Positions 39,238 to 53,466 of a stretch of 64,000 nucleotides of DNA are shown here, in pieces. The position numbers and the translations under genes were made by a program. Where the stretch lies: positions 124,001 through 188,000 of the forward strand of contig NZ_VTPX01000001.1 of assembly GCF_008298015.1 (NCBI RefSeq), given 5' to 3'. The first letter of the stretch is position 1; each line of letters opens with the position of its first letter. This stretch comes from Salinicola corii. Its GTDB lineage: Bacteria; Pseudomonadota; Gammaproteobacteria; Pseudomonadales; Halomonadaceae. The notes under the pieces are model-generated. The model was not told the DNA's origin. It worked only from the letters and a program-made list of their open reading frames with translations, and did no database searches.

Positions 39238-41514
39238 TCAAACCGCGGTGGTAACACACTCATTGGCACAGAGGATATTCCTGACTCGCTCCGGCGTGAA
39301 CGGTGGTTGGCGAAAACGTGCACCCGTCGCGTCATATAGTGCCGCTGCGATTGCCGGAGCACCCGGCAGCGAGGCGGATTCGCCGACGCCCAGCGGTTCC
39401 CCGTTGGCATTATCAAGCAGCAGCACATCGATCGGTGGCACTTCGTCGAAGCGCAGAATCGAGTAACCGCCCCATTCGCGACTGATCGGTAACCCCTTTT
39501 CGAAGCTTACCTGCTCCTTGAGCGTGCGGCTCAGTGTCTGAATGACGTTACCGTGCACCTGATGACGTACACCAGCCGGATTGATCATCAGTCCAGCATC
39601 TTGTCCCACGACAATCCGGGTGATGCGAATGCGTCCGCTCTCGCGATGGACCTTTAAGGTAACGGCCCAGGCCGCGTAGGCTGCGCCAAAGCCCGGAAAC
39701 TTGCTATGGACATAGTGGCCATAGGCAAAGCCATGCCCTTCAAACCAACCTTCCTCCTGCTCGCTGCGAGAGCGATCGAACCAACGCGTACGCTCGGCGA
39801 CTGCCCGTACCAGGCCCTGCGGCCGGGGTTCCAGATAGCGTAGCCGATATTCTACCGGATCGACGCCAGCGCGTTCGGCCAGTTCATCGATGAAGCTCTC
39901 GTGGGCGAAACAGTTGGGGAGCGCAGATACCCCGCGCAACCAAGAGGCCCGCACGATCGGCGCGACGTCGTCGCAGGCGACTCTCAGATTCGGGTAACGA
40001 TAAGGAGGAACGGAGGTTCGATCTCCCATCTGAAAAGGAATATCGCTGGGTTGTCTGGCGCCGGTCAACAACAACGCCAGCGTCGGTGCATCGTTGGATG
40101 GATAGCGGGTCACGAAGTCATAGGCACAAAGCGCGCCGTTGTCGTCGGCACCACCGCGAACGTCCATCAACTGCGCGGTTCCCTTCGGCTCCCACCCGTG
40201 TTCCTGAGCGCGATCCAGCTGCACGCGCACCGGCCGGCCCACAACGCTTGACAGCAGAGCGGCATCGGCGCCGACGTCATCGGCGCAATTGCGCCCGTAA
40301 CAGCCGGCCGCCTCATGGCGCTGGATTTCGATGCGGCTTTCGTCCATCGACAGCAGCATGGCGAGATCGGCGCGCAGGCTATGGGGATTCTGGGTGCCGG
40401 AATGGAGCGTCAGATGACCGTTGCGATAATCGGCGACCGAGCAGGAGGGACCGATCGATCCGTGCAGTTGATAGGGCCAGACATAGGTGCGTTCGAGCAC
40501 TGTCGATGCCGAGGCCAGCGCCGCATCGACATCGCCCTGTTGCGTCAGCGGGCGATGTTTGGCCGGTTGGCGGCGCAGCGCGGTTTCGAGATCGTCGAGA
40601 TCGGGAAGTTCCGGCAACGGGCGCCAGCGAACCTTGAGTCGCTTGGCGGCGAGCGCGGCCTGTTCTTCTCGCTCGGCCACCACGCCGACGAAGTCTCCTT
40701 CGACGACCAAGGCAACGAAGCCAGGCAGGTCCCGCACCGACGCCTCGTCGGCTTCGATCAGGCCGTGACCGACGAAAGTGCCCAGATCATGCCCTACGTA
40801 AGGTGCGCGCACGACGCGTCCGTGAAGCATGCCGGGCAGGCGGACATCGTGGACGTAGATGAACTCTCCGCTGGCCTTGGCCGGGATATCGACCCGCGGT
40901 GTGCTTCGTCCCACCACTCGATAGTCACGACTGGCTTTGGTGGGAACTTCGGTGTCGACCTTGAGTGCGATGCGTTCACCGGCCAGCAGTGACTCGTAGC
41001 GCAGCATGCGGGTTACGTCGTCGGTCGCACGGCTGGCGTCGTTCTCCAGTACATGAACGACGCCGTCGTCGACATGCAACTGTTCCACCGGCATCTCGAG
41101 GCGCCGGGCAGCCAGCGCCAACAGGTGTCGCCTGGCCTGGGCGGCAGCGCAGCGCAGAGGGGTGGCGGAAATCTGAATGGTGGCGCTGGCAATGGTCGGC
41201 CCCTGGTTCGGCACCTCGAATGGATTGCCCAGTACCATGTGGATGCGCTCGACGCCGACATCGAGCTCTTCAGCGACGATCTGTGTCAGCGCGGTACGGA
41301 TGCCGGTGCCCAGATCGACATGGCCGTTGAAGGCAAGAAAGCGACCGTCGGCAAGCAAGGCGATGAACAGCTCCGGCTCGGTAGGTATGAAATCCGAGCG
41401 CGTACCTGGCTGACCAGCGGCGGGTTTCGGCGGTACGACCGGGTCGCGATAGATCACCAGCATATCGGCGCCCTGCAGTAGATGCTCTCGAGTGGGTAGG
41501 GGGGGCGATGTCAT
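39238..41514 (-). CDS. Molybdopterin-binding dehydrogenase subunit, NicB/IorB-like, catalytically intact
   Basis: A 758-residue molybdenum hydroxylase large subunit of the isoquinoline 1-oxidoreductase/NicB layout. The GTGIRTALTQIVAEELDV motif lies near residue 70 instead of in the C-terminal half. Cofactor motifs are intact: AAGCYGRNCADDVGADAALL, VVGQDAGLMINPAG, and GVGES, whose E712 should be the base catalyst. No signal peptide is seen. The partner genes xdhC and mocA follow, but no iron-sulfur or FAD subunit gene is adjacent; nicA and the cytochrome subunit lie 8.5-12 kb away in the same region. I infer that it supplies the active site for nicotinate hydroxylation to 6-hydroxynicotinate. 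A different N-heterocycle substrate is possible. Confidence 0.78.
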   Translation of the reverse strand: MTSPPLPTREHLLQGADMLVIYRDPVVPPKPAAGQPGTRSDFIPTEPELFIALLADGRFLAFNGHVDLGTGIRTALTQIVAEELDVGVERIHMVLGNPFEVPNQGPTIASATIQISATPLRCAAAQARRHLLALAARRLEMPVEQLHVDDGVVHVLENDASRATDDVTRMLRYESLLAGERIALKVDTEVPTKASRDYRVVGRSTPRVDIPAKASGEFIYVHDVRLPGMLHGRVVRAPYVGHDLGTFVGHGLIEADEASVRDLPGFVALVVEGDFVGVVAEREEQAALAAKRLKVRWRPLPELPDLDDLETALRRQPAKHRPLTQQGDVDAALASASTVLERTYVWPYQLHGSIGPSCSVADYRNGHLTLHSGTQNPHSLRADLAMLLSMDESRIEIQRHEAAGCYGRNCADDVGADAALLSSVVGRPVRVQLDRAQEHGWEPKGTAQLMDVRGGADDNGALCAYDFVTRYPSNDAPTLALLLTGARQPSDIPFQMGDRTSVPPYRYPNLRVACDDVAPIVRASWLRGVSALPNCFAHESFIDELAERAGVDPVEYRLRYLEPRPQGLVRAVAERTRWFDRSRSEQEEGWFEGHGFAYGHYVHSKFPGFGAAYAAWAVTLKVHRESGRIRITRIVVGQDAGLMINPAGVRHQVHGNVIQTLSRTLKEQVSFEKGLPISREWGGYSILRFDEVPPIDVLLLDNANGEPLGVGESASLPGAPAIAAALYDATGARFRQPPFTPERVRNILCANECVTTAV

Positions 41515-41862: not shown

Positions 41863-42369
41863 ATGTCGAATTCCTTCAGTCGTGCCTTCGGTGATCCGGA
41901 TACCTTCGATTCGGAGCCGACAGCGACCGCGACGCCCCACCAGCAGGATTACGAATTCTCCGAGCAGGTCGGTCATCTCCTGCGACGAGCCTATCAGAGG
42001 CATACCGCGATATTTCAAAGCCAGAGCTGCGACAGGCAACTCACGGCCATTCAATTTGTCACGTTGTGTACGATTATGGACAACGGCCCCAGCGCGCTGA
42101 CCGATCTGGTCAAGGCGACGGCCATCGATCCCGCGACCATCCGTGGTGTGATCAAACGGCTCAAGACGCGCGACTGGATTTCGCTGTCTTCCGACCCGAG
42201 CGATCAACGCAAGGTGATCGTTGACATCACGCTGGCCGGTCGCGAGCTGGTAGCGACGATGGTTCCTCGAGCCAAGCGTATCTCCGACATGACGATGGGC
42301 AGGCTCAACCCTGCCGAGCGTGTTGCCTTGATGCACCTGCTGGAAAAGATGAACGCCTCCGAGAGCTGA
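41863..42369 (+). CDS. MarR-family regulator, NicR-like
   Basis: A 168-residue MarR-type regulator. The winged helix region is LTAIQFVTLCTIMDNGPSALTDLVKATAIDPATIRGVIKRLKTRDWISLSSDPSDQRKVIVDITLAG, preceded by an approximately 35-residue acidic tail. In Pseudomonas putida the nicotinate genes are repressed by the MarR protein NicR, which responds to 6-hydroxynicotinate. The location between the molybdopterin subunit and the other nic-like genes makes this the probable equivalent. Likely targets are the palindrome at 49879-49908 and its own promoter (partial match 41842-41848). Confidence 0.8.
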   Translation: MSNSFSRAFGDPDTFDSEPTATATPHQQDYEFSEQVGHLLRRAYQRHTAIFQSQSCDRQLTAIQFVTLCTIMDNGPSALTDLVKATAIDPATIRGVIKRLKTRDWISLSSDPSDQRKVIVDITLAGRELVATMVPRAKRISDMTMGRLNPAERVALMHLLEKMNASES

Positions 42370-42477: not shown

Positions 42478-43650
42478 TCATGATTGCGATACCCCGCCGT
42501 GTTCGATGACGCGCTGACAGAAATCCTCGAAGCGGCCACTGAAATAGTGCTCACGCGGCCAGCCGGTACGTGGCAGATAGAAGAACATCTCCTCCAGCCG
42601 CGATTTGATGGTGGCGTGATTCTTGGTGTCGATGACAAAAACGTGCTTGCCGGTAGCGTCGAAGGGGCTTTCGGCCAGTTGGCGCAGGATGAAACGCACT
42701 AGGGAATCTTCCTGCGGCATGCTGTAGCCGACGATCACCAGTACGTCGGTCTCGCGCAGCAGACGCACGGCCTTGGGGAAGACCTGATGGAAGTAGGGCT
42801 CGTCGTAGTCCTGTACCTGGGATGGCAGGATCAGCAACGGTGGCTCTTGGCGAATTTCGGCGTCGCTGCGCTGGCGATACTCGAAGTCGAAGCCTTGCGC
42901 GGTCGGCAGAATCTCGAATCCGCCATTGATCTTGATCACGTTGCGGTCGACGGTACGCGGTAGATGCTCCCAGATCGTGCCGCCACAGATACGCTGTGGT
43001 GTCACCCCGCGATAGAGGCGACCGAAGACTGGCGCATCCTGGCGATAGACGTGTTCCAGTATCGTCTCGATAGTGAAGTCGTAGTTCGTGGTCAGGAAAT
43101 GGTAAAGCGGCCAGTTGGTACCCAGATCCACGCTGCTCGCATGGTCTTCCAACGCGGCGAAGAAGTGGGTAATGGCACGTTGGCCCCGGCTATCGTAGGG
43201 CGAGGTAAAGCGCAGGCTGTCATCGTCGACGTTATGGATATCGCAGGCGGCGGTGAAGCGGCGCATGACTAGCGTCCGCAACTCGTTGATGCTCAGGCGC
43301 AAGTTCTGATCGTCGAAATAGCGGTTGCGAATATCGGGGTAGCGCACCTGCATGTCGAGCACGTAGCGTAGGTTCTTGAACCGCTCGAAGTCCAGGTGGC
43401 GGTAATCCTCCCAACCGATGACATGCATGAGGTGCTGCAGGTTGGGAAAGTCACGGATGTCATCCAGATCGATGGCGAACAGCTCACCGTCGGTGGGGGA
43501 GCGCGGATCCCATGCCTTGGAGAACCCGGCGCCACACCAGAATGTCACCACGGGTGGTTTGCGCTCCTCGAGATTCTGGCCGAGCAGGTTGCCGATCAGG
43601 CGCCCGAAGGCGTCGACCGTGGCGGCGTTACTTACGTCCGTCGACGACAT
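42478..43650 (-). CDS. SIR2-like (SIR2_2) protein, putative NAD-binding enzyme
   Basis: A 390-residue protein of the SIR2-like superfamily. Visible motifs are WCGAGFSKAWDPRSP (residues 39-53, NAD-binding GAG loop), FLTTNYDFTIE (185-195), IKINGG (239-244, place of the usual L-H-G) and LVIVGYSMPQED (304-315). Zinc-binding cysteines of protein deacetylases are not evident, so it is nearer to SIR2 domains that bind or cleave NAD, including those in phage-defence genes. It starts 7 bases after the fusion gene with a good AGGAG, so it is third in the nadC operon; a role in NAD breakdown feeding nicotinate catabolism is an inference. No defence partner gene lies next to it. Confidence 0.75.
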   Translation of the reverse strand: MSSTDVSNAATVDAFGRLIGNLLGQNLEERKPPVVTFWCGAGFSKAWDPRSPTDGELFAIDLDDIRDFPNLQHLMHVIGWEDYRHLDFERFKNLRYVLDMQVRYPDIRNRYFDDQNLRLSINELRTLVMRRFTAACDIHNVDDDSLRFTSPYDSRGQRAITHFFAALEDHASSVDLGTNWPLYHFLTTNYDFTIETILEHVYRQDAPVFGRLYRGVTPQRICGGTIWEHLPRTVDRNVIKINGGFEILPTAQGFDFEYRQRSDAEIRQEPPLLILPSQVQDYDEPYFHQVFPKAVRLLRETDVLVIVGYSMPQEDSLVRFILRQLAESPFDATGKHVFVIDTKNHATIKSRLEEMFFYLPRTGWPREHYFSGRFEDFCQRVIEHGGVSQS

Positions 43651-43657
43651 GGCATCA

Positions 43658-45718
43658 TCACTCCTGTTGCAGCTCGAAGGCATTGCCCGTCAGGGCAAAG
43701 GCGACGACCCTGTCGAGTGTGCTCTGGCTGGAGGTATAAAGGCGGTAGAGCGGCTGCCCGACTTCGACCCGCTTCCCCTTGTTGGCGATGAGATCGAGTC
43801 CGGCCAGTGTGTCCCCTGGCGCGCCGGTGAGTCGAGCGATCGAATTGAGTCGCCAGATATCGATATGATCAATGCGTCCGGAAGTCGGCGCGGTGATATC
43901 GGCATGAAAAGGTCCGGGAGCGGCTGGAAGTGCACGTCGTCCCTGCAGATCAACGATGCGTTCGAACTGAGCTTTTGCAGCACCACCGCTGAGAAGGGCC
44001 TCGGCACGCACACGGCCCTTGCCCGGTGCCACATCCGGTGCCCAGTCGAGCAGTGCACCGGCGAAATCGAGCGCCTTGTCACGCAGATCTCTCGGTGCGT
44101 CGGGTTCGTTGCCGAGCACTTTCAGGATATCGCGCGCCTCCAGGTTGGGGCCGATGCCTCTGCCCACCGGCTGGGTACCATCGGTGATCCGCGCCAGTAC
44201 CCGCATGCCGAGCGCCGCACCCACCGATTCCATCAGTTGCTTCAGCTCCTGCGCTTTTCCCTGGTTCTGCAGTTTGGCCTGGGGGCCGGTCGGTAGATCG
44301 ACGACCAGATGGGTCACGCCGGCGGCCAGCTTTTTGGACAGGATAGAGGCCACGCTCATTCGCGCCGAGTCCAGATCCAGCGGGCGCACGATGGCGTTGG
44401 TCATGTCGTCGAAAGGCGTATGCGACAGACGTCCGTTCCAGACGATACAGCCGTTGGCCCCGTTGACGACACGGCGGACATCGTCCGGCCCGAGTTCGAC
44501 GTCGGCGAACAGCGCCATGGTGTCGGCCGTGCCCGCCGGTGAGGTAATCGCGCGTGAGGAGGCTTTGGGGATGATCAGGCCATGGGCTGCGACGATCGGA
44601 ATCACGATCAACGTGATGCGGCTGCCGGGCAACCCGCCCATCGAGTGCTTGTCGACCACCATCGGACGGTCCCAGTGCAGCGTCTGGGCAATACGCGCGC
44701 GGGCGCGGGTCAGCTCGATAACCTCGTTGTCGTTGAGGTGATTGGCCAGACTGGCCAGAAACGCCCCGGTCGACGCTTCGTCGAAGCGATTGTCGGCGAT
44801 GTCGTGGACCACGCTGGAGAACTCGTCCTCGTTCAACGAATGGCCGCGGAGCTTGCGCCGAAGCGCCGGTGCGCCGACGGGCGGCGGTGCCGGTTGCAGC
44901 TGCAGTGGCATGCCGGCGATCAGCCCGAGCCGGGATAGGGTGGCGCGAGCTAGGCCGATGGCATTGGGAGCCAGCCAGCGGTCGTCGTCTACCCACTGCA
45001 CTTCCAGCACTAGCGGCCGACCGAGAATGTCGACCTCGACGCGAGGTGCGGGTAGCGCCTGGATAGCATCGTGCAACGGATGGCGGAGCGAGAGAAAGCC
45101 GATCAGCCGAGGGCCGGTATCGATTGGCAGATGATGAATTGGCGTGTCGCCACCGCAGGCACGGGCCAGGGCGATGAGGAAGCGTTCGATGCCGGTATTC
45201 AGATCGACACCGTTATCGACGCGATAGTGGTCGATACCGTTCGGTGCCTGCCAATCCAGCGCCTGAAGGCGGCCGAGAATGTCGCTGGTGGTTTCGCGCC
45301 CGCGAGTCGACAGGCGCTGCGCGCGAATTTCGCGCGATGCCGTGACTTCGATCACCGCGATCGGCAAACGCAGTTCGGCAATGGTGCCTACGACCTTGCG
45401 CGACACGTTGGCCAGCACCGTACGCCCACGCGCGAGATCGTCGCGAATATCCGCACGTAGTGCATAGCGCAAGCCGTGAGCGTGCCAGTGAATCAGAAAA
45501 TCGCCGGTCTTCAGTGCCGTGTCGAAATCCGACTCGCTCATGGACTGATGATCTTCACCGCCCGCATCGGCGGGGCGGGTAATGATCCGCCGGGTCAGGA
45601 TTATATGTTGAGTGCAGGCGTAGTCGGCCAGCGCGCGCTCCATCAGGGTATCCTTGCCGGCCCCGCTGGGGCCGACAATCAATACCAGTAAACCGCATGG
45701 TGGATTATCCGAACGCAT
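43658..45718 (-). CDS. Fusion: PhnN-type ribose 1,5-bisphosphate kinase + AMP/thymidine phosphorylase
   Basis: A 686-residue two-enzyme fusion. Residues about 1-190 match PhnN, the kinase that turns ribose 1,5-bisphosphate plus ATP into PRPP: P-loop VGPSGAGKDTL at 15-25, RRIITRPADAGGEDH, FLIHWHAHGLRYAL and VLANVSRK. Residues about 192-686 are a full-length archaeal-type AMP phosphorylase/thymidine phosphorylase: VVDKHSMGGLPGSRITL, SSRAITSPAGTADTM, NGCIVWNG, DLPTGPQAKL and QPVGRGIGPNLEA. AMP phosphorylase releases base plus ribose 1,5-bisphosphate, the very substrate of the fused kinase. The start (45718) lies 5 bases after the nadC stop. I know of no described fusion of this kind. Base preference (adenine, nicotinate or other) is unknown. 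Confidence 0.85.
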   Translation of the reverse strand: MRSDNPPCGLLVLIVGPSGAGKDTLMERALADYACTQHIILTRRIITRPADAGGEDHQSMSESDFDTALKTGDFLIHWHAHGLRYALRADIRDDLARGRTVLANVSRKVVGTIAELRLPIAVIEVTASREIRAQRLSTRGRETTSDILGRLQALDWQAPNGIDHYRVDNGVDLNTGIERFLIALARACGGDTPIHHLPIDTGPRLIGFLSLRHPLHDAIQALPAPRVEVDILGRPLVLEVQWVDDDRWLAPNAIGLARATLSRLGLIAGMPLQLQPAPPPVGAPALRRKLRGHSLNEDEFSSVVHDIADNRFDEASTGAFLASLANHLNDNEVIELTRARARIAQTLHWDRPMVVDKHSMGGLPGSRITLIVIPIVAAHGLIIPKASSRAITSPAGTADTMALFADVELGPDDVRRVVNGANGCIVWNGRLSHTPFDDMTNAIVRPLDLDSARMSVASILSKKLAAGVTHLVVDLPTGPQAKLQNQGKAQELKQLMESVGAALGMRVLARITDGTQPVGRGIGPNLEARDILKVLGNEPDAPRDLRDKALDFAGALLDWAPDVAPGKGRVRAEALLSGGAAKAQFERIVDLQGRRALPAAPGPFHADITAPTSGRIDHIDIWRLNSIARLTGAPGDTLAGLDLIANKGKRVEVGQPLYRLYTSSQSTLDRVVAFALTGNAFELQQE

Positions 45719-45723
45719 CCCGT

Positions 45724-46596
45724 TCACTCCGCATCGTCGAGACCGATGTCCAGCGCCGGCGAGGACTGCGTGATGCGCCCGACCGAAATGAAATCGACGC
45801 CGGTCTCGGCGATGGCGCGGATGGTCTCCAGACGCACGCCGCCGGAAGCCTCCAGCAGGACGCGACCATCGACCATGGTCACGGCGCGCTGCATCTCTTC
45901 CACCGACATGTTGTCGAGCATGATCACGTCGGCGCCGGCGGCCAGCGCTTCCTCCACTTGATCGAGACGGTCGCACTCGACCTCGACCTTGGTCAGTACC
46001 GGCACGCTGGATTTGGCTCGGGCAACGGCGACGGTGATGCTGCCGCAGACGGCGATGTGGTTGTCCTTGAGCATGATGCCGTTGTCCAAACCCAGGCGGT
46101 GATTGCGCCCACCACCGCAGGCCACGGCATGCTTTTCCATGGCACGCAGGCCCGGCGTGGTCTTGCGTGAGTCGATCAGTTGCGCCCTAGTGCCGGCGAT
46201 ACGCTCGATGTAGGTAGTGGTGACGGTGGCGATGCCGGAAAGGTGTTGGGCCAGATTCAGTGCCGTACGCTCGGCGGTCAGGATGCTGCGCGCCGGTCCT
46301 TCGATCTTGAGCAACGTGGTGCCTTTGTCGACCTGCTGGCCATCCTTCGCCAGCACTTCGACCTTGATGCTGGCATCGTAGAAGGTGAACACGCGAGCGG
46401 CAGCAGCAAGGCCAGCCAGCGTCATCGGCTCGCGGGCGCGCATCTCGAAGCGGGCGGGCAGCTCGGCGTCGATCAGTAGCGTGGCGGTGAGATCGAAATA
46501 GCCGATGTCTTCGCGCAGGAAAGCGCGGATCTGGTCGTCCAATACCAAAGGATCGAGCTGCCAGGCTTGGGGGACGTTGCGATTTTCTGGGGTCAT
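45724..46596 (-). CDS. nadC: Quinolinate phosphoribosyltransferase (nicotinate-nucleotide pyrophosphorylase, carboxylating)
   Basis: A 290-residue NadC. It converts quinolinate and PRPP to nicotinate mononucleotide, CO2 and pyrophosphate in NAD synthesis. Family residues are intact: R110, R144-K145 in DSRKTTPGLR, R167 in GGGRNHRLGL, K177 in LKDNHI, E205/E207 in KVEVECD and D228 in MLDNM. ModD, a NadC relative near molybdenum genes, was considered, but the sequence reads as NadC. It is first of three tightly spaced genes (nadC, kinase-phosphorylase fusion, SIR2-like), none of which includes nadA or nadB. That placement in a nicotinate-degradation region suggests a specialised or second copy. 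Confidence 0.87.
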   Translation of the reverse strand: MTPENRNVPQAWQLDPLVLDDQIRAFLREDIGYFDLTATLLIDAELPARFEMRAREPMTLAGLAAAARVFTFYDASIKVEVLAKDGQQVDKGTTLLKIEGPARSILTAERTALNLAQHLSGIATVTTTYIERIAGTRAQLIDSRKTTPGLRAMEKHAVACGGGRNHRLGLDNGIMLKDNHIAVCGSITVAVARAKSSVPVLTKVEVECDRLDQVEEALAAGADVIMLDNMSVEEMQRAVTMVDGRVLLEASGGVRLETIRAIAETGVDFISVGRITQSSPALDIGLDDAE

Positions 46597-46830
46597 GGCT
46601 CGAATGTCCTTATTGGTTTTTGTCCTGGTTTCGTCGTAGAGATAGCGCACTTTGAGCGCGGGCGCTGAGAGTACCGTCACGCAACCGGGCTACCAGAGTG
46701 GCACGGAGGCCTGCGCTATCTCCAAAACGCGACTTGGCAGCGTGCCATCTAGGGCGGTGTCAAGGCCGTCGATATGGCATGGTAGGAGATGGTACTCCTC
46801 GCGGCACGGAGTAAGAACAGAACGAGCGGT

Positions 46831-49908: not shown

Positions 49909-49960
49909 AGTTTGCACCACGGTAGTGCCAAATCTACGAACAATCCCAATCGAGAGCGGC

Positions 49961-50455
49961 ATGACGGACAGCATTGCTTTGCGGGTCAATGGTGAAATGC
50001 GGCATCTGCCGCTCGACCCTGCGACGCCATTACTTCAAGTTTTACGCAACGACCTCTGTCTCAATGGCCCTAAATACGGTTGCGGTCTGGGGCAGTGCGG
50101 TGCCTGCAGCGTTCTGATCGAAGGGCGCGTGGCCCGCGCCTGTGTGATATCTCTGGGCGCCGTGGCTGGTCGCGATGTCGTCACGCTCGAGGGCCTAGGT
50201 GAATCGGGGCAGCTCGATCCGGTGCAGACCGCTTTCATCGATTGTCAGGCGGCGCAATGTGGCTACTGCCTCAACGGTATGATCATGACGGTGCGAGGTC
50301 TGCTCAATCACTGCATGCGACCGTCGCGTGAAAAGATTGTCAGTGCGCTCAATTATAATCTCTGTCGCTGTGGAACCCATGTCGAAATTCTTGAAGCCGC
50401 CATGCTGGCTGCCGAGCTCGATGCAGCCGGCATGGCGCCGAGCGAGGTCGAATGA
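49961..50455 (+). CDS. nicA: Nicotinate dehydrogenase small subunit, [2Fe-2S]
   Basis: A 164-residue iron-sulfur subunit. The plant-type cluster motif is GCGLGQCGACSV, and the second cluster uses CQAAQCGYCLNG and NYNLCRCGTH, as in all xanthine-dehydrogenase-type small subunits. Its size and domain order match NicA of P. putida. It passes electrons from the molybdenum site to the cytochrome subunit. The start at 49961 follows GAGAG. Its stop overlaps the next gene's ATG (ATGA), so nicA and nicB are translationally coupled. Confidence 0.9.
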   Translation: MTDSIALRVNGEMRHLPLDPATPLLQVLRNDLCLNGPKYGCGLGQCGACSVLIEGRVARACVISLGAVAGRDVVTLEGLGESGQLDPVQTAFIDCQAAQCGYCLNGMIMTVRGLLNHCMRPSREKIVSALNYNLCRCGTHVEILEAAMLAAELDAAGMAPSEVE

Positions 50456-53400
50456 GGTCGCCGTCTGCTTCGCGTGCCGGGCGTCCGCCACTTCCTGGTC
50501 ACTTCGACGATCGGCTCGGTCTTCTGCGCTACGCCGTGGTCATTCGACCACCCTCGGTCAGTTTTCACCAAGGGGACTTCAACTGCTCGAGGTTGCTGGA
50601 TATCGACCACGCCTCGCTAGGCGAATGGTCGGCCCAAGTCGCCGTTGTCGAGCTCGGCAATTTTGTGGCGGTCGTTGCGGCCGATCCGGATCTAGCGCGA
50701 CATGCGGTTCGACGTCTGCGTTTGCACTGGGAGGCGTCGTCTGCACTGGCCGATGTCGCGGGTCAGGCCGATAGAAACGAAGGCGAGAATGGCTCGACGC
50801 TGAACGCTCACCGGCCGGGTACGATGGCAAGGCGCTACGGCTGGCCCAATCGATTGCGTTGGGGTGAGCGTGCCGGCTGGGTCGTCGCCGATGTGTTGCC
50901 GACTCGGGCCAGTCTCTGGGTTGACACTGCCACGTCGGACGCGCTACGCGATGATCTCTCTACATTGCTGGCGTTGGCACCGGCGGCGATCTCTCTGTTC
51001 AGCGAGCGCAGCGATCATGGCGGGCTGAGCCTTGGCCGTCTCGCCTGTGACGATGCCGCGGCGGATGCCGCTTTGATCTCGCGACACATCGAGGCGCCGA
51101 TCGCGATCTGGCTGGATGCCGATTATCAACGTGACGTCGACGCTCTTGGCTTGGCCGAGACGTGGGACGTGGAGGCCAGCGGTGCGCATGCCCTGGATGC
51201 TGTGTCGCAGCAGTACGGAATGGCGAGGCACGCACCCGCCATGGCACTGTTGCTGACCGGCCTCACCGAGCTCGAAAGAAGCCCGGCACCCGCCAGTCGG
51301 CCAGCAGAATCCCCCTATCGGCGTGCCAATCCCGTTGTAAAAGTCGGCGATCAAGGCGGCGGAAGCGATGGCATGCGTGTCTTCGCCGAAGAGTCATTCT
51401 TGGACGAATGGAGTCGGCAGCAAACCAGCGATCCGCTCGAGTTACGCTTGCGGCATCTCGATGACAGTCGCGGTCAGGCCCTGATCGAGGCGGTACGTCA
51501 GCGTGCTGAATGGCGTCCTGTACCGACCTCCGGCGCAACCATTGATTGCTCGACGCCGCTGACAGGCCGGGGCTTTGCTTACTGTCATTTGCCAGATACG
51601 AATGGGGAGTGGGAAAGCGGGACCCGTTCCGCTTGGATTGCCGATGTCACCGTCGATCCGGTAACGGGAAACGTGCAACTGACCCGTCTAGTGGTGGGAC
51701 AGGATGCCGGTGAGTCGGTCAATAGTGAGGCGCTGACTTCAGCGCTGCGGCAGCAATTACTGCCTGAGTCATCATTGCTTCTCCGGCACGATGGAGGCAT
51801 CGACGAATGGGGGGATCCAACCGTCACTCCCCGTTCGATGCTGCCGGCCATCGATACCCTAACGCTGAATACCTCCGGTGTGCCTCCCGCTGTCACGACC
51901 GACGCCTTGACGCCCGGTGGCGTTGACAGCGGATGGGTTGACGCAAGGGCCCACTTCAATGCACAGACCCTGGCTCCGGGAACGGCGGCCATCGCCAACG
52001 CACTGTGCGATGCGACGGGGCTGCGCTTTCGTGAGCCACCTTTCACTGCAGCGCGAATCCGAGCGGGGCTGCGTGAGCAGGCGGCCGCTGATTCTGATCA
52101 AGCCCCCGACTTTGGTCGACGGCCTGAATCGACACTCTTTGGTACGAGACGACGGCGTCGGAGAAGGTGGACCAGCGCTGTCGTGGCCTCGCTGCTAACG
52201 CTTGGCGGTGCGGCGGCGACGGTATTGCCGTGGAAGGCATCGATCGCTCCGATTCCGCGCCCCGCATCGGATCTCTACTCCGAGGCTGCCATTGAGCGCG
52301 GCCGATTGGTCGCCGAGGCAGGTGACTGCGCAGTCTGCCATACCGCTGATGAAGATGGGGTGGCCAACGCAGGTGGTCGAGCCTTCGAGACGCCGTTTGG
52401 TACCGTCTTCAGCACCAATATCACCCCCGACGAAGCGACGGGTATCGGCAATTGGTCCTTTGGTGCGTTCGAGCGTGCCATGCGCCACGGCATTAGTCGC
52501 GACGGACATCATCTCTATCCGGCCTTTCCCTACACAGCGTTCGCCAAATTGAGCGATACAGACATGCAGTCGCTCTACGCCTACTTAATGACGCAGCCGG
52601 CGGTTCCATCCAGGTCCATCGAAAACGATATACGCTTCCCGTTCAATATCCGCGGATTGATGGCGGGCTGGAATCTGTTGAACCACGATCCCAAACCATT
52701 CACGCCGGACCCGACGCAGAGCGCGCTGTGGAATCGCGGTGCTTATCTGGCCGAGGGCGTAGGGCACTGTAGCGCCTGCCATTCGCCGCGTAATGCCATG
52801 GGGGCGGAAAAGCGTGGCGATGACTACTTTGCCGGTGCGCTGATCGACGGCTGGGAGGCGCCGGCGCTGAGTCAGTTGTCGAAGTCGCCGGTGCCATGGA
52901 GCGAAAGTGCCTTGTACGATTACCTACGCACGGGTCGCGCGGCGCAGCATGGTGTTGCCGCTGGGCCGATGGCGCCGGTGGTGGCCGGTCTGGGGGAATT
53001 GCCAGAGAGTGATGTCCGCGCTATCGCCCACTACGTGGCGTCGTTCATGCCGACTGCGATCGATGCCGCGCAGGCGTCCGATCTGGCTGATGAACATGTG
53101 GCGCTCACGGCTGCTGCGCCGCCGGGTTTTGATGCCGGAGAGCGGCTCTATCGTGGCGCTTGTGCCTCCTGTCATGAAGGTGGCGACGTGCCGGTTTATT
53201 CCCGGGCGGAGACGTCGCTGGCGCTCAACACGAATTTGCATAGCGATCGCCCGGACAATGTCATCCAGACGATTCTCGATGGTGTCGTGGCGCCCCATTC
53301 ACGCGCTGGCAACGCTGGCGACATGCCGGGGTTTCGTGCCGATTTCAGCGATAGCCAACTGACAGCACTGGTGAGTTATTTACGTGGCCGTTTCGCACCT

Positions 53401-53466
53401 GATCAGCCGGCCTGGGAGCATCTTTCCGAGAGAATCGGCGAACTGCGCGGCGAGGCAGTACCGTGA
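50452..53466 (+). CDS. nicB: NicB-like subunit: degenerate molybdopterin domain + membrane anchor + triple-heme cytochrome c
   Basis: A 1004-residue fusion. Residues about 15-545 resemble the C-terminal two thirds of the 758-residue molybdopterin subunit at 39238-41514 (compare FVAVVAADPDLARHAVRRLRLHW, LVVGQDAGESVNS, and ALCDATGLRFREPPFT), but the first 210 or so residues of the domain are missing. The cofactor loops are eroded, and the expected catalytic glutamate is alanine (A504). A basic stretch (RRRRRRR, 566-572) and a membrane helix (about 574-595) follow, then a triple cytochrome c: CAVCH 626-630, CSACH 773-777 and CASCH 904-908. Normal NicB combines an active molybdopterin domain with the cytochrome. 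Here the hemes likely pass electrons to the respiratory chain, while catalysis comes from another subunit. Confidence 0.85.
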   Translation: MRSPSASRAGRPPLPGHFDDRLGLLRYAVVIRPPSVSFHQGDFNCSRLLDIDHASLGEWSAQVAVVELGNFVAVVAADPDLARHAVRRLRLHWEASSALADVAGQADRNEGENGSTLNAHRPGTMARRYGWPNRLRWGERAGWVVADVLPTRASLWVDTATSDALRDDLSTLLALAPAAISLFSERSDHGGLSLGRLACDDAAADAALISRHIEAPIAIWLDADYQRDVDALGLAETWDVEASGAHALDAVSQQYGMARHAPAMALLLTGLTELERSPAPASRPAESPYRRANPVVKVGDQGGGSDGMRVFAEESFLDEWSRQQTSDPLELRLRHLDDSRGQALIEAVRQRAEWRPVPTSGATIDCSTPLTGRGFAYCHLPDTNGEWESGTRSAWIADVTVDPVTGNVQLTRLVVGQDAGESVNSEALTSALRQQLLPESSLLLRHDGGIDEWGDPTVTPRSMLPAIDTLTLNTSGVPPAVTTDALTPGGVDSGWVDARAHFNAQTLAPGTAAIANALCDATGLRFREPPFTAARIRAGLREQAAADSDQAPDFGRRPESTLFGTRRRRRRRWTSAVVASLLTLGGAAATVLPWKASIAPIPRPASDLYSEAAIERGRLVAEAGDCAVCHTADEDGVANAGGRAFETPFGTVFSTNITPDEATGIGNWSFGAFERAMRHGISRDGHHLYPAFPYTAFAKLSDTDMQSLYAYLMTQPAVPSRSIENDIRFPFNIRGLMAGWNLLNHDPKPFTPDPTQSALWNRGAYLAEGVGHCSACHSPRNAMGAEKRGDDYFAGALIDGWEAPALSQLSKSPVPWSESALYDYLRTGRAAQHGVAAGPMAPVVAGLGELPESDVRAIAHYVASFMPTAIDAAQASDLADEHVALTAAAPPGFDAGERLYRGACASCHEGGDVPVYSRAETSLALNTNLHSDRPDNVIQTILDGVVAPHSRAGNAGDMPGFRADFSDSQLTALVSYLRGRFAPDQPAWEHLSERIGELRGEAVP

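What the first reader, a model, noticed from the sequence alone, without database searches (positions are those of the whole stretch)
43658..45718. Fusion of a ribose 1,5-bisphosphate kinase (PhnN) to an archaeal-type AMP/thymidine phosphorylase
Seen: a single 686-codon frame joins a complete PhnN-type P-loop kinase (residues 1-190) to a full-length phosphorylase of the AMP phosphorylase family. Known: AMP phosphorylase makes base plus ribose 1,5-bisphosphate; PhnN converts ribose 1,5-bisphosphate plus ATP to PRPP. Inference: one polypeptide would carry a nucleotide to free base and PRPP with a channelled intermediate. In archaea the same intermediate goes to an isomerase and RuBisCO III; here it would be recycled to PRPP. 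I know of no description of this fusion.
Basis: partly seen in the sequence, partly recalled or inferred. Interest (0 to 1): 0.9.

Follow-up and report, generated by a model that had tools for sequence, protein, structure and literature searches.

The report
Sugar-recycling route from quinolinate to nicotinate
A two-headed bacterial enzyme, nearly always encoded right after the quinolinate enzyme NadC, appears to strip the sugar phosphate off NadC's product and rebuild it into NadC's co-substrate, so that quinolinate becomes nicotinate (often next to genes that consume nicotinate) while the sugar is reused.

Summary
The fusion is real: one 686-codon frame holds a PhnN-type ribose 1,5-bisphosphokinase (residues 9-184) and a full phosphorylase of the bacterial AMP/"putative thymidine" phosphorylase family (195-682). 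It is a conserved family: 28 loci examined across alpha-, beta- and gammaproteobacteria, 22 fused and 6 as adjacent phnN-phosphorylase genes, form one clade. nadC lies directly upstream in 26 of 28. In a separate draw of 398 Pseudomonadota genomes, 4 of 4 fused loci (the window's own included) have nadC upstream, while 26 of 26 stand-alone phosphorylases examined have a PRPP-synthase gene beside them and no nadC. The linked NadCs are a distinct lineage. Neighbours include Bug27-type binding proteins (Bug27 binds quinolinate in vitro) or other transporters, and, in 11-13 of 31 loci, genes of two different nicotinate-degradation routes. I therefore read the substrate as NaMN rather than AMP: quinolinate + PRPP -> NaMN (NadC); NaMN + Pi -> nicotinate + ribose 1,5-bisphosphate (phosphorylase); R15P + ATP -> PRPP (PhnN). 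PRPP would be catalytic. No activity was measured. The main rival is PRPP supply for NAD synthesis; many host genomes without nadA keep only this nadC, which fits that rival.

The parts
43658..45718 (-). fusion protein PhnN-phosphorylase, 686 aa
45149..45718 (-). PhnN-type ribose 1,5-bisphosphokinase domain (residues 1-190), Walker A GPSGAGKD
   Evidence: TIGR02322 above cut-off; Walker A motif found in 28 of 28 loci
43661..45148 (-). phosphorylase domain (residues 191-686), N-domain plus core, AMP/thymidine phosphorylase fold; proposed NaMN phosphorylase
   Evidence: NF003338 and TIGR02645 above cut-off; fold match 4ga5; clade-specific residues
45724..46680 (-). nadC, quinolinate phosphoribosyltransferase, 5 bp upstream of the fusion; operon-type lineage and the only nadC found in the genome
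   Evidence: TIGR00078 329 bits
46831..48153 (-). MFS transporter; the same family lies near the fusion in L006, Pseudomonas and Pandoraea loci
   Evidence: PF07690
48413..49567 (-). NicC, 6-hydroxynicotinate 3-monooxygenase
   Evidence: PDB 5eow E 1.3e-170
49925..50455 (+). NicA-like 2Fe-2S subunit of nicotinate dehydrogenase
   Evidence: Fer2_2 and Fer2; the Nic name is inferred from context
50452..53466 (+). NicB-like subunit: reduced molybdopterin region plus cytochrome c domains
   Evidence: PF00034, PF13442, weak PF20256 below cut-off; name inferred from context
39238..41514 (-). molybdopterin-binding subunit homologous to the first part of full-length NicB-like proteins
   Evidence: PF20256, PF02738; 53% to the 1236-aa NicB-like protein of L026
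38216..39259 (-). XdhC-like molybdenum-enzyme maturation factor
   Evidence: PF13478, PF02625
37615..38349 (-). MocA-like molybdenum cofactor cytidylyltransferase (start uncertain)
   Evidence: TIGR03310 100.5 bits, below its cut-off of 186.45
41863..42369 (+). MarR-family regulator, candidate regulator of the cluster
   Evidence: PF01047
42478..43683 (-). SIR2-like protein directly downstream; linked to nadC in Salinicola with or without the fusion
   Evidence: PF13289

Best explanation
NadC and the fusion form a closed, PRPP-recycling route that decarboxylates quinolinate to nicotinate. (1) NadC: quinolinate + PRPP -> nicotinate mononucleotide (NaMN) + CO2 + PPi. (2) Phosphorylase half: NaMN + Pi -> nicotinate + ribose 1,5-bisphosphate. 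(3) PhnN half: ribose 1,5-bisphosphate + ATP -> PRPP + ADP, returned to NadC. Net: quinolinate + Pi + ATP -> nicotinate + CO2 + PPi + ADP. The phosphoribosyl group acts as a removable activator that makes the C2 decarboxylation possible. Nicotinate then enters the adjacent NicA/B/C pathway, or the reductive enamidase pathway in other hosts. Shown here: the genes, fusion, conserved order, distinct clades and neighbours. Step 1 is established NadC chemistry and step 3 established PhnN chemistry, both assigned here by family only. Inferred: step 2 on NaMN, any channelling between the two halves, and growth on quinolinate.
For: nadC on the same strand directly upstream in 26 of 28 linked loci, 0 of 17 stand-alone phosphorylase loci. 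Separate draw: 4 of 4 fused loci have nadC (one is the window's own); 26 of 26 stand-alone loci examined have prs beside them and no nadC (30 of 46 matches examined, flanks about 1.3-1.5 kb). Fused and split forms make one clade, 100/99. Linked NadCs together with 12 other Salinicola NadCs form a clade (40 rows, 100/100) apart from 15 NadCs of the window's order and 6 other NadC copies of fusion-bearing genomes. Nicotinate-catabolism genes in 11 of 31 linked loci, or 13 counting two with a candidate 6-hydroxynicotinate reductase; none in 17 stand-alone loci or 12 fusion-less Salinicola nadC loci. They belong to two different pathways: NicC 5eow, NicD 4l0c, NicE 4fq7 against enamidase 2vun. Fusion and NicC occur in the same 4 of 18 Salinicola genomes. 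The L022 binding protein matches Bug27 2qpq at E 3.6e-132, and Bug27 binds quinolinate in vitro (PMC11452294 passages). Clade-specific N441 aligns to active-site Tyr199 of human thymidine phosphorylase.
Against: No activity on NaMN is shown for any member. 18 of 31 linked loci have no counted nicotinate-catabolism gene nearby; two of these (L007, L024) have only distant NicA- or NicC-like hits. Only 8 of 23 host genomes have a NicC ortholog at 50% identity or more, one of them in two pieces. 15 of 23 host genomes lack nadA over the cut-off (one has two partial matches, several are small MAGs), so their nadC may serve NAD salvage. The window genome has nadA and this nadC alone, so an NaMN-degrading partner would compete with NAD synthesis unless regulated. 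Two Pseudomonas loci lack nadC next to the fusion. Of three further fused loci from the draw only one has candidate nicotinate genes. Bug27 was earlier reported to bind nicotinate, nicotinamide and citrate as well (PMC11452294 passage). Two of the seven clade-marking residues, S359 and L431, are shared with AMP phosphorylase. The stand-alone sister clade also pairs with a PRPP-forming enzyme, so coupling to PRPP alone does not single out NaMN.
Confidence: 0.7

Rival explanations
1. PRPP supply for NAD synthesis: the phosphorylase half degrades ordinary nucleotides (AMP, CMP, UMP), PhnN turns the R15P into PRPP, and NadC uses it to make NaMN for NAD from imported quinolinate.
For: 15 of 23 host genomes lack nadA over cut-off, and 14 of these 15 have a single nadC over cut-off. 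PMC11452294 reads the phnN neighbour as PRPP source for NadC (passages). AMP phosphorylase is the closest solved structure.
Against: Does not explain the repeated nicotinate-degradation neighbours of two pathway types, nor why the nadC-linked clade separates from the other phosphorylases with its own base-site residues. The hosts should already make PRPP with Prs (general knowledge, not tested).
Confidence: 0.2
2. Pyridine nucleotide turnover: the phosphorylase recovers nicotinate (or nicotinamide from NMN) from NAD breakdown products, with PRPP saved; quinolinate is not the catabolic substrate.
For: A SIR2-like gene sits beside nadC in Salinicola and an FRG-domain gene in 10 of 31 linked loci; both could act on NAD (speculative).
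Against: nadC would not be needed as the near-constant partner; the SIR2-like gene is linked to nadC also where the fusion is absent; Bug27-type transport points to outside quinolinate.
Confidence: 0.07
3. One reading: a general AMP/NMP salvage enzyme making free base plus PRPP.
For: Family membership and fold.
Against: Below the AMP phosphorylase equivalog cut-off; nadC linkage unexplained.
Confidence: 0.03

Closest known systems
Archaeal AMP (NMP) phosphorylase and pentose bisphosphate pathway (T. kodakarensis TK0352; PMC9700705 passages)
   Same: Same fold (4ga5, target TM 0.92) and same product R15P expected.
   Different: Here R15P would go to a fused PhnN and PRPP rather than to an isomerase and Rubisco; N428, H433 and N441 stand where all 17 stand-alones and AMP phosphorylase have G, L and I; AMP_phos cut-off not met.
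PhnN ribose 1,5-bisphosphokinase of E. coli
   Same: Same family, TIGR02322 above cut-off; reaction R15P -> PRPP (PMC9700705 passage).
   Different: Fused to a phosphorylase and placed after nadC; no phosphonate genes in the two annotated fusion loci, not searched elsewhere.
nadC-phnN-bug27 neighbourhood noted in PMC11452294
   Same: Same kind of loci (Variovorax, Jezberella): nadC, 'phnN', bug27.
   Different: That text (passages read; 0 hits for 'phosphorylase') treats phnN as PRPP supply; the phosphorylase half, and hence the cycle, was not found in it.
Prs-linked stand-alone 'thymidine phosphorylase family protein' of bacteria
   Same: Nearest relatives of the phosphorylase half in the tree.
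   Different: Beside prs (26 of 26 and 8 of 8; 7 of 9 plasmid loci) and on the plasmids an MBL hydrolase (9 of 9); nadC in none of the loci examined; placed outside the linked clade.
Plant route quinolinate -> NaMN -> nicotinate (recalled, no call)
   Same: Decarboxylation through NaMN, then release of nicotinate.
   Different: There the ribose phosphate is lost by hydrolysis (recalled); here R15P would be kept and remade into PRPP for one ATP.

Membership tests
PhnN, ribose 1,5-bisphosphokinase (TIGR02322) | model score above curated cut-off | tested here: met
   164.4 bits against 156
PhnN, ribose 1,5-bisphosphokinase (TIGR02322) | kinase activity R15P -> PRPP | not testable with these tools
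   Walker A motif in 28 of 28 loci is consistent only
bacterial/archaeal phosphorylase family NF003338 / TIGR02645 | model scores above cut-offs | tested here: met
   553.1 against 434 and 453.1 against 434.6
AMP phosphorylase equivalog (TIGR03327) | model score above cut-off | tested here: not met
   377.7 against 535
AMP phosphorylase equivalog (TIGR03327) | phosphorolysis of AMP, CMP, UMP | not testable with these tools
   bench assay needed
thymidine phosphorylase DeoA (TIGR02643) | model score above cut-off | tested here: not met
   129.7 against 570.7; the genome has another, DeoA-like locus 33% identical to the phosphorylase half
NadC, quinolinate phosphoribosyltransferase (TIGR00078) | model score above cut-off | tested here: met
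   329.2 against 198.4
nicotinate catabolism (nic) cluster | NicC ortholog in the cluster | tested here: met
   5eow E 1.3e-170
nicotinate catabolism (nic) cluster | NicD and NicE in the genome | tested here: met
   adjacent on contig C1, 56% and 72% identity to the Pandoraea proteins
nicotinate catabolism (nic) cluster | NicX and NicF in the genome | not tested
   no search made
archaeal pentose bisphosphate pathway | R15P isomerase and Rubisco III alongside | not tested
   no genome-wide search made

The most novel reading that the evidence does not exclude
A catabolic cycle, undescribed as far as these searches show, in which PRPP is a catalyst: quinolinate is ribosylated so that it can lose CO2, the ribose is taken off phosphorolytically by a dedicated NaMN phosphorylase and re-energised by a fused kinase with one ATP per turn. 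The module (operon-type NadC plus PhnN-phosphorylase) moves between alpha-, beta- and gammaproteobacteria, plugs into two unrelated nicotinate-degradation pathways, and in Salinicola appears to have displaced the ancestral nadC.
Probability: 0.62. Interest if true: 0.9.

Novelty: new variant of a known kind. Interest (0 to 1): 0.8.

Why it matters
If true, it gives a function to a group of bacterial 'thymidine phosphorylases' and a role for PhnN outside phosphonate use, reveals a route by which bacteria could consume quinolinate (a neuroactive tryptophan product) without hydroxylating it first, and shows a sugar phosphate used as a recyclable activating group for a hard decarboxylation. It also warns that a 'nadC' gene need not mean NAD synthesis: the linked NadCs form their own lineage. 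The prediction is concrete and testable with two purified proteins.

Tried and rejected
Assembly error or chance join: rejected, the fusion is conserved in other genomes. Simple thymidine or AMP phosphorylase: model cut-offs not met. SIR2-like neighbour as part of the system: set aside, since it stays with nadC in 12 of 12 fusion-less Salinicola loci. The first gene calling was spoiled by antisense frames in GC-rich DNA and was replaced. One attempted yardstick (E. coli pncB) hit pepN instead, so PncB was not tested; the E. coli nadA and nadB loci were fetched but not used. NCBIfam, PDB and Pfam gave no name for the 490-aa protein near the enamidase gene; calling it 6-hydroxynicotinate reductase is a guess from context and recalled size. 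Aligning H433 with Leu148 of human TP was considered and dropped: Leu148 aligns with I391 and H433 with Leu191. R202 of human TP falls one residue from R445, so no claim is made on it.

Paper searches: PhnN with AMP phosphorylase (one paper), PhnN with thymidine phosphorylase (none), nicotinate degradation with nadC (none), quinolinic acid degradation gene cluster (nine), quinolinate catabolism with nadC (16 papers, 15 listed), human TP residues (two), quinolinate growth (eight), 6-hydroxyquinolinic acid (none), quinolinate with PhnN (one), mononucleotide phosphorylase or quinolinate degradation (23 papers). Only open-licence PMC papers are covered. Passages were read of PMC11452294, PMC9700705 and PMC2719695; every other paper was seen only in listings.

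Full report
OBSERVATION. The frame at window 43658-45718 (minus strand) encodes 686 residues without a stop. Residues 9-184 match PhnN above its cut-off and 195-682 match NF003338 above its cut-off (TIGR02645 too, 218-682), while the AMP phosphorylase equivalog is missed (377.7 against 535 bits). The best solved relative by sequence is T. kodakarensis AMP phosphorylase 4ga5/4ga4, and the predicted model (pLDDT 86.2, pTM 0.73) agrees (target TM 0.92).

SETTING. The gene lies 5 bp after nadC (45724-46680) on the same strand. Upstream lie an MFS transporter, NicC (6-hydroxynicotinate 3-monooxygenase, PDB 5eow E 1.3e-170) and NicA- and NicB-like genes; downstream a SIR2-like gene, a MarR regulator, a molybdopterin subunit, XdhC and a MocA-like gene. 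NicD and NicE orthologs are adjacent on another contig of the same genome. The closest named relatives of the fusion are Salinicola.

CONSERVATION. A pattern-based scan of one genome for each of 84,980 species gave 24 loci (a lower bound), and the plasmid collection gave 3 more with both halves among the 40 of 322 records listed. With the window that is 28: 22 are fused and 6 (L010, L012, L013, L014, L017, L028) are separate phnN and phosphorylase genes in the same order. nadC is directly upstream on the same strand in 26 of 28; the exceptions are two Pseudomonas loci, L015 and L016. In the 19 fusions aligned, 7 keep the phosphorylase N-domain and 12 lack it. The Walker A motif is present in 28 of 28.

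CONTROL. Seventeen stand-alone phosphorylase loci have no nadC (0 of 17). In an even draw of 398 Pseudomonadota genomes, 43 have a match at E <= 1e-90 (46 matches) and 4 matches span the PhnN part, one being the window's own, so the fusion is uncommon. Of the 30 loci given for these matches, the 4 fused ones have nadC upstream and the 26 stand-alone ones have a prs gene adjacent and no nadC within the roughly 1.3-1.5 kb of flank held; 16 matches were not examined. Eight stand-alone loci of relatives also have prs (8 of 8). In nine stand-alone plasmid loci, taken from the 37 such rows listed, an MBL hydrolase is annotated nearby in 9 and prs next to the gene in 7.

TREES. Fused and split phosphorylases form one clade (28 rows, 100/99, branch 0.48) against 17 stand-alone sequences and AMP phosphorylase. 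Linked NadCs and 12 other Salinicola NadCs form one clade (40 rows, 100/100) apart from 15 NadCs of the window's order and 6 other NadC copies of fusion-bearing genomes (one row, L094, was dropped by the program, and the bootstrap had not fully settled). Window NadC is 38-48% identical to the 15 NadCs of other genera of its order but 71-76% to the 12 other Salinicola, whose nadC sits at the same syntenic place without fusion or nic genes. The simplest reading is that the module's NadC displaced the ancestral one in Salinicola and the rest was later lost in many species; a later gain of the rest is not excluded.

PARTNERS. In 31 linked loci (28 plus L124-L126), 11 carry nicotinate-catabolism genes: NicC with NicA- and NicB-like genes in WIN, L005, L006, L018, L019 and L020, with NicD and NicE in four of these; NicA- and NicB-like genes in L026; the cytochrome part of the NicB-like protein at contig ends of L023 and L025; enamidase in L021 and L027. 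L009 and L124 carry a candidate 6-hydroxynicotinate reductase, making 13. Of the three new loci from the even draw, one (L124) has such genes. L007 and L024 have only distant NicA- or NicC-like hits and are not counted. Identities by solved structure were checked on one protein each: NicD 4l0c, NicE 4fq7, enamidase 2vun. These markers are absent from 17 stand-alone loci (7-13 kb) and 12 fusion-less Salinicola nadC loci (about 17 kb), where only SIR2, XdhC, MarR and one distant Bug27 hit appear; the linked loci span 7-32 kb. Within Salinicola, fusion and NicC occur in the same 4 of 18 genomes; since they share a locus this may be one event. NicC also occurs in 4 other relatives without the fusion, as expected of an upstream add-on. 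Transport genes: Bug27-type in 9 of 31, TRAP in 8, NMT1-type ABC in 3, the window's MFS family in 7, L006 having two kinds. One of the nine (L022) was compared with the PDB and matches Bug27; Bug27 binds quinolinate with submicromolar affinity (PMC11452294, passages), though earlier work cited there found nicotinate, nicotinamide and citrate binding too.

RESIDUES. Seven positions are fixed or nearly so (at least 96%) in the linked clade and rare or absent in the stand-alone clade: R340, S359, M360, N428, L431, H433, N441; S359 and L431 are shared with AMP phosphorylase. N441 and S359 align with Tyr199 and Ser117 of human thymidine phosphorylase, while Ser217 and Lys221 are kept as S458 and K462; these human residues lie in or at its active site (PMC2719695 passages). 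This fits a changed base pocket but does not show which base.

MECHANISM. NadC makes NaMN and needs PRPP; the phosphorylase family turns nucleotides into base plus R15P; PhnN turns R15P into PRPP. Put in one operon the three close a cycle whose only net change is quinolinate to nicotinate plus CO2 at the cost of one ATP and the PPi. Two different nicotinate-degrading pathways next to it, and quinolinate-type transport, point to the same input and output. Energetics and the need to ribosylate the ring nitrogen before decarboxylation are inference from known NadC chemistry.

AGAINST. Fifteen of 23 host genomes lack nadA over cut-off and 19 of 23 have a single nadC over cut-off (in the two Pseudomonas that single copy is not the linked kind), so NAD salvage from quinolinate is a live rival, and 18 of 31 loci have no counted catabolic gene nearby. 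The genome of L009 was not held and not searched. The window genome has nadA and only this nadC, so NaMN must be shared with NAD synthesis. No enzyme assay was available.

PRIOR ART. PMC11452294 notes bug27 beside nadC and phnN in Variovorax and Jezberella and reads phnN as PRPP supply (passages). No paper found links PhnN with a phosphorylase in this role (open-licence PMC only).

VERDICT.

Noticed in passing
window 42478-43683; L065-L076: A SIR2-like gene (PF13289 in the window copy) is directly linked to nadC in 12 of 12 Salinicola nadC loci that lack the fusion; an unexplained nadC-SIR2 pair.
   Followed up: partly
L007, L021-L026, L033, L035, L125: An FRG-domain gene of unknown role lies near nadC or the fusion in 10 of 31 linked loci.
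   Followed up: no
L077-L093, L098-L123: Stand-alone bacterial 'thymidine phosphorylases' are regularly paired with a PRPP synthase homolog, and on plasmids with an MBL-fold hydrolase; what this sister system does was not pursued.
   Followed up: partly
window 39238-41514 and 50452-53466: The nicotinate dehydrogenase seems split in two: a molybdopterin protein and a cytochrome c protein that keeps a diverged molybdopterin-like region (30% identity between them).
   Followed up: partly
L017 and L028: In Defluviicoccus the nadC-phnN-phosphorylase genes are flanked by two genes of one cluster whose scanned member is a UbiD-family decarboxylase.
   Followed up: no
G009 and G014 (Salinicola): Two Salinicola genomes gave no match to nadA or nadC at the thresholds used.
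   Followed up: no
G040 (Variovorax sp. E3): nadA and the nicC ortholog each appear as two adjacent pieces; sequencing error or decay.
   Followed up: no
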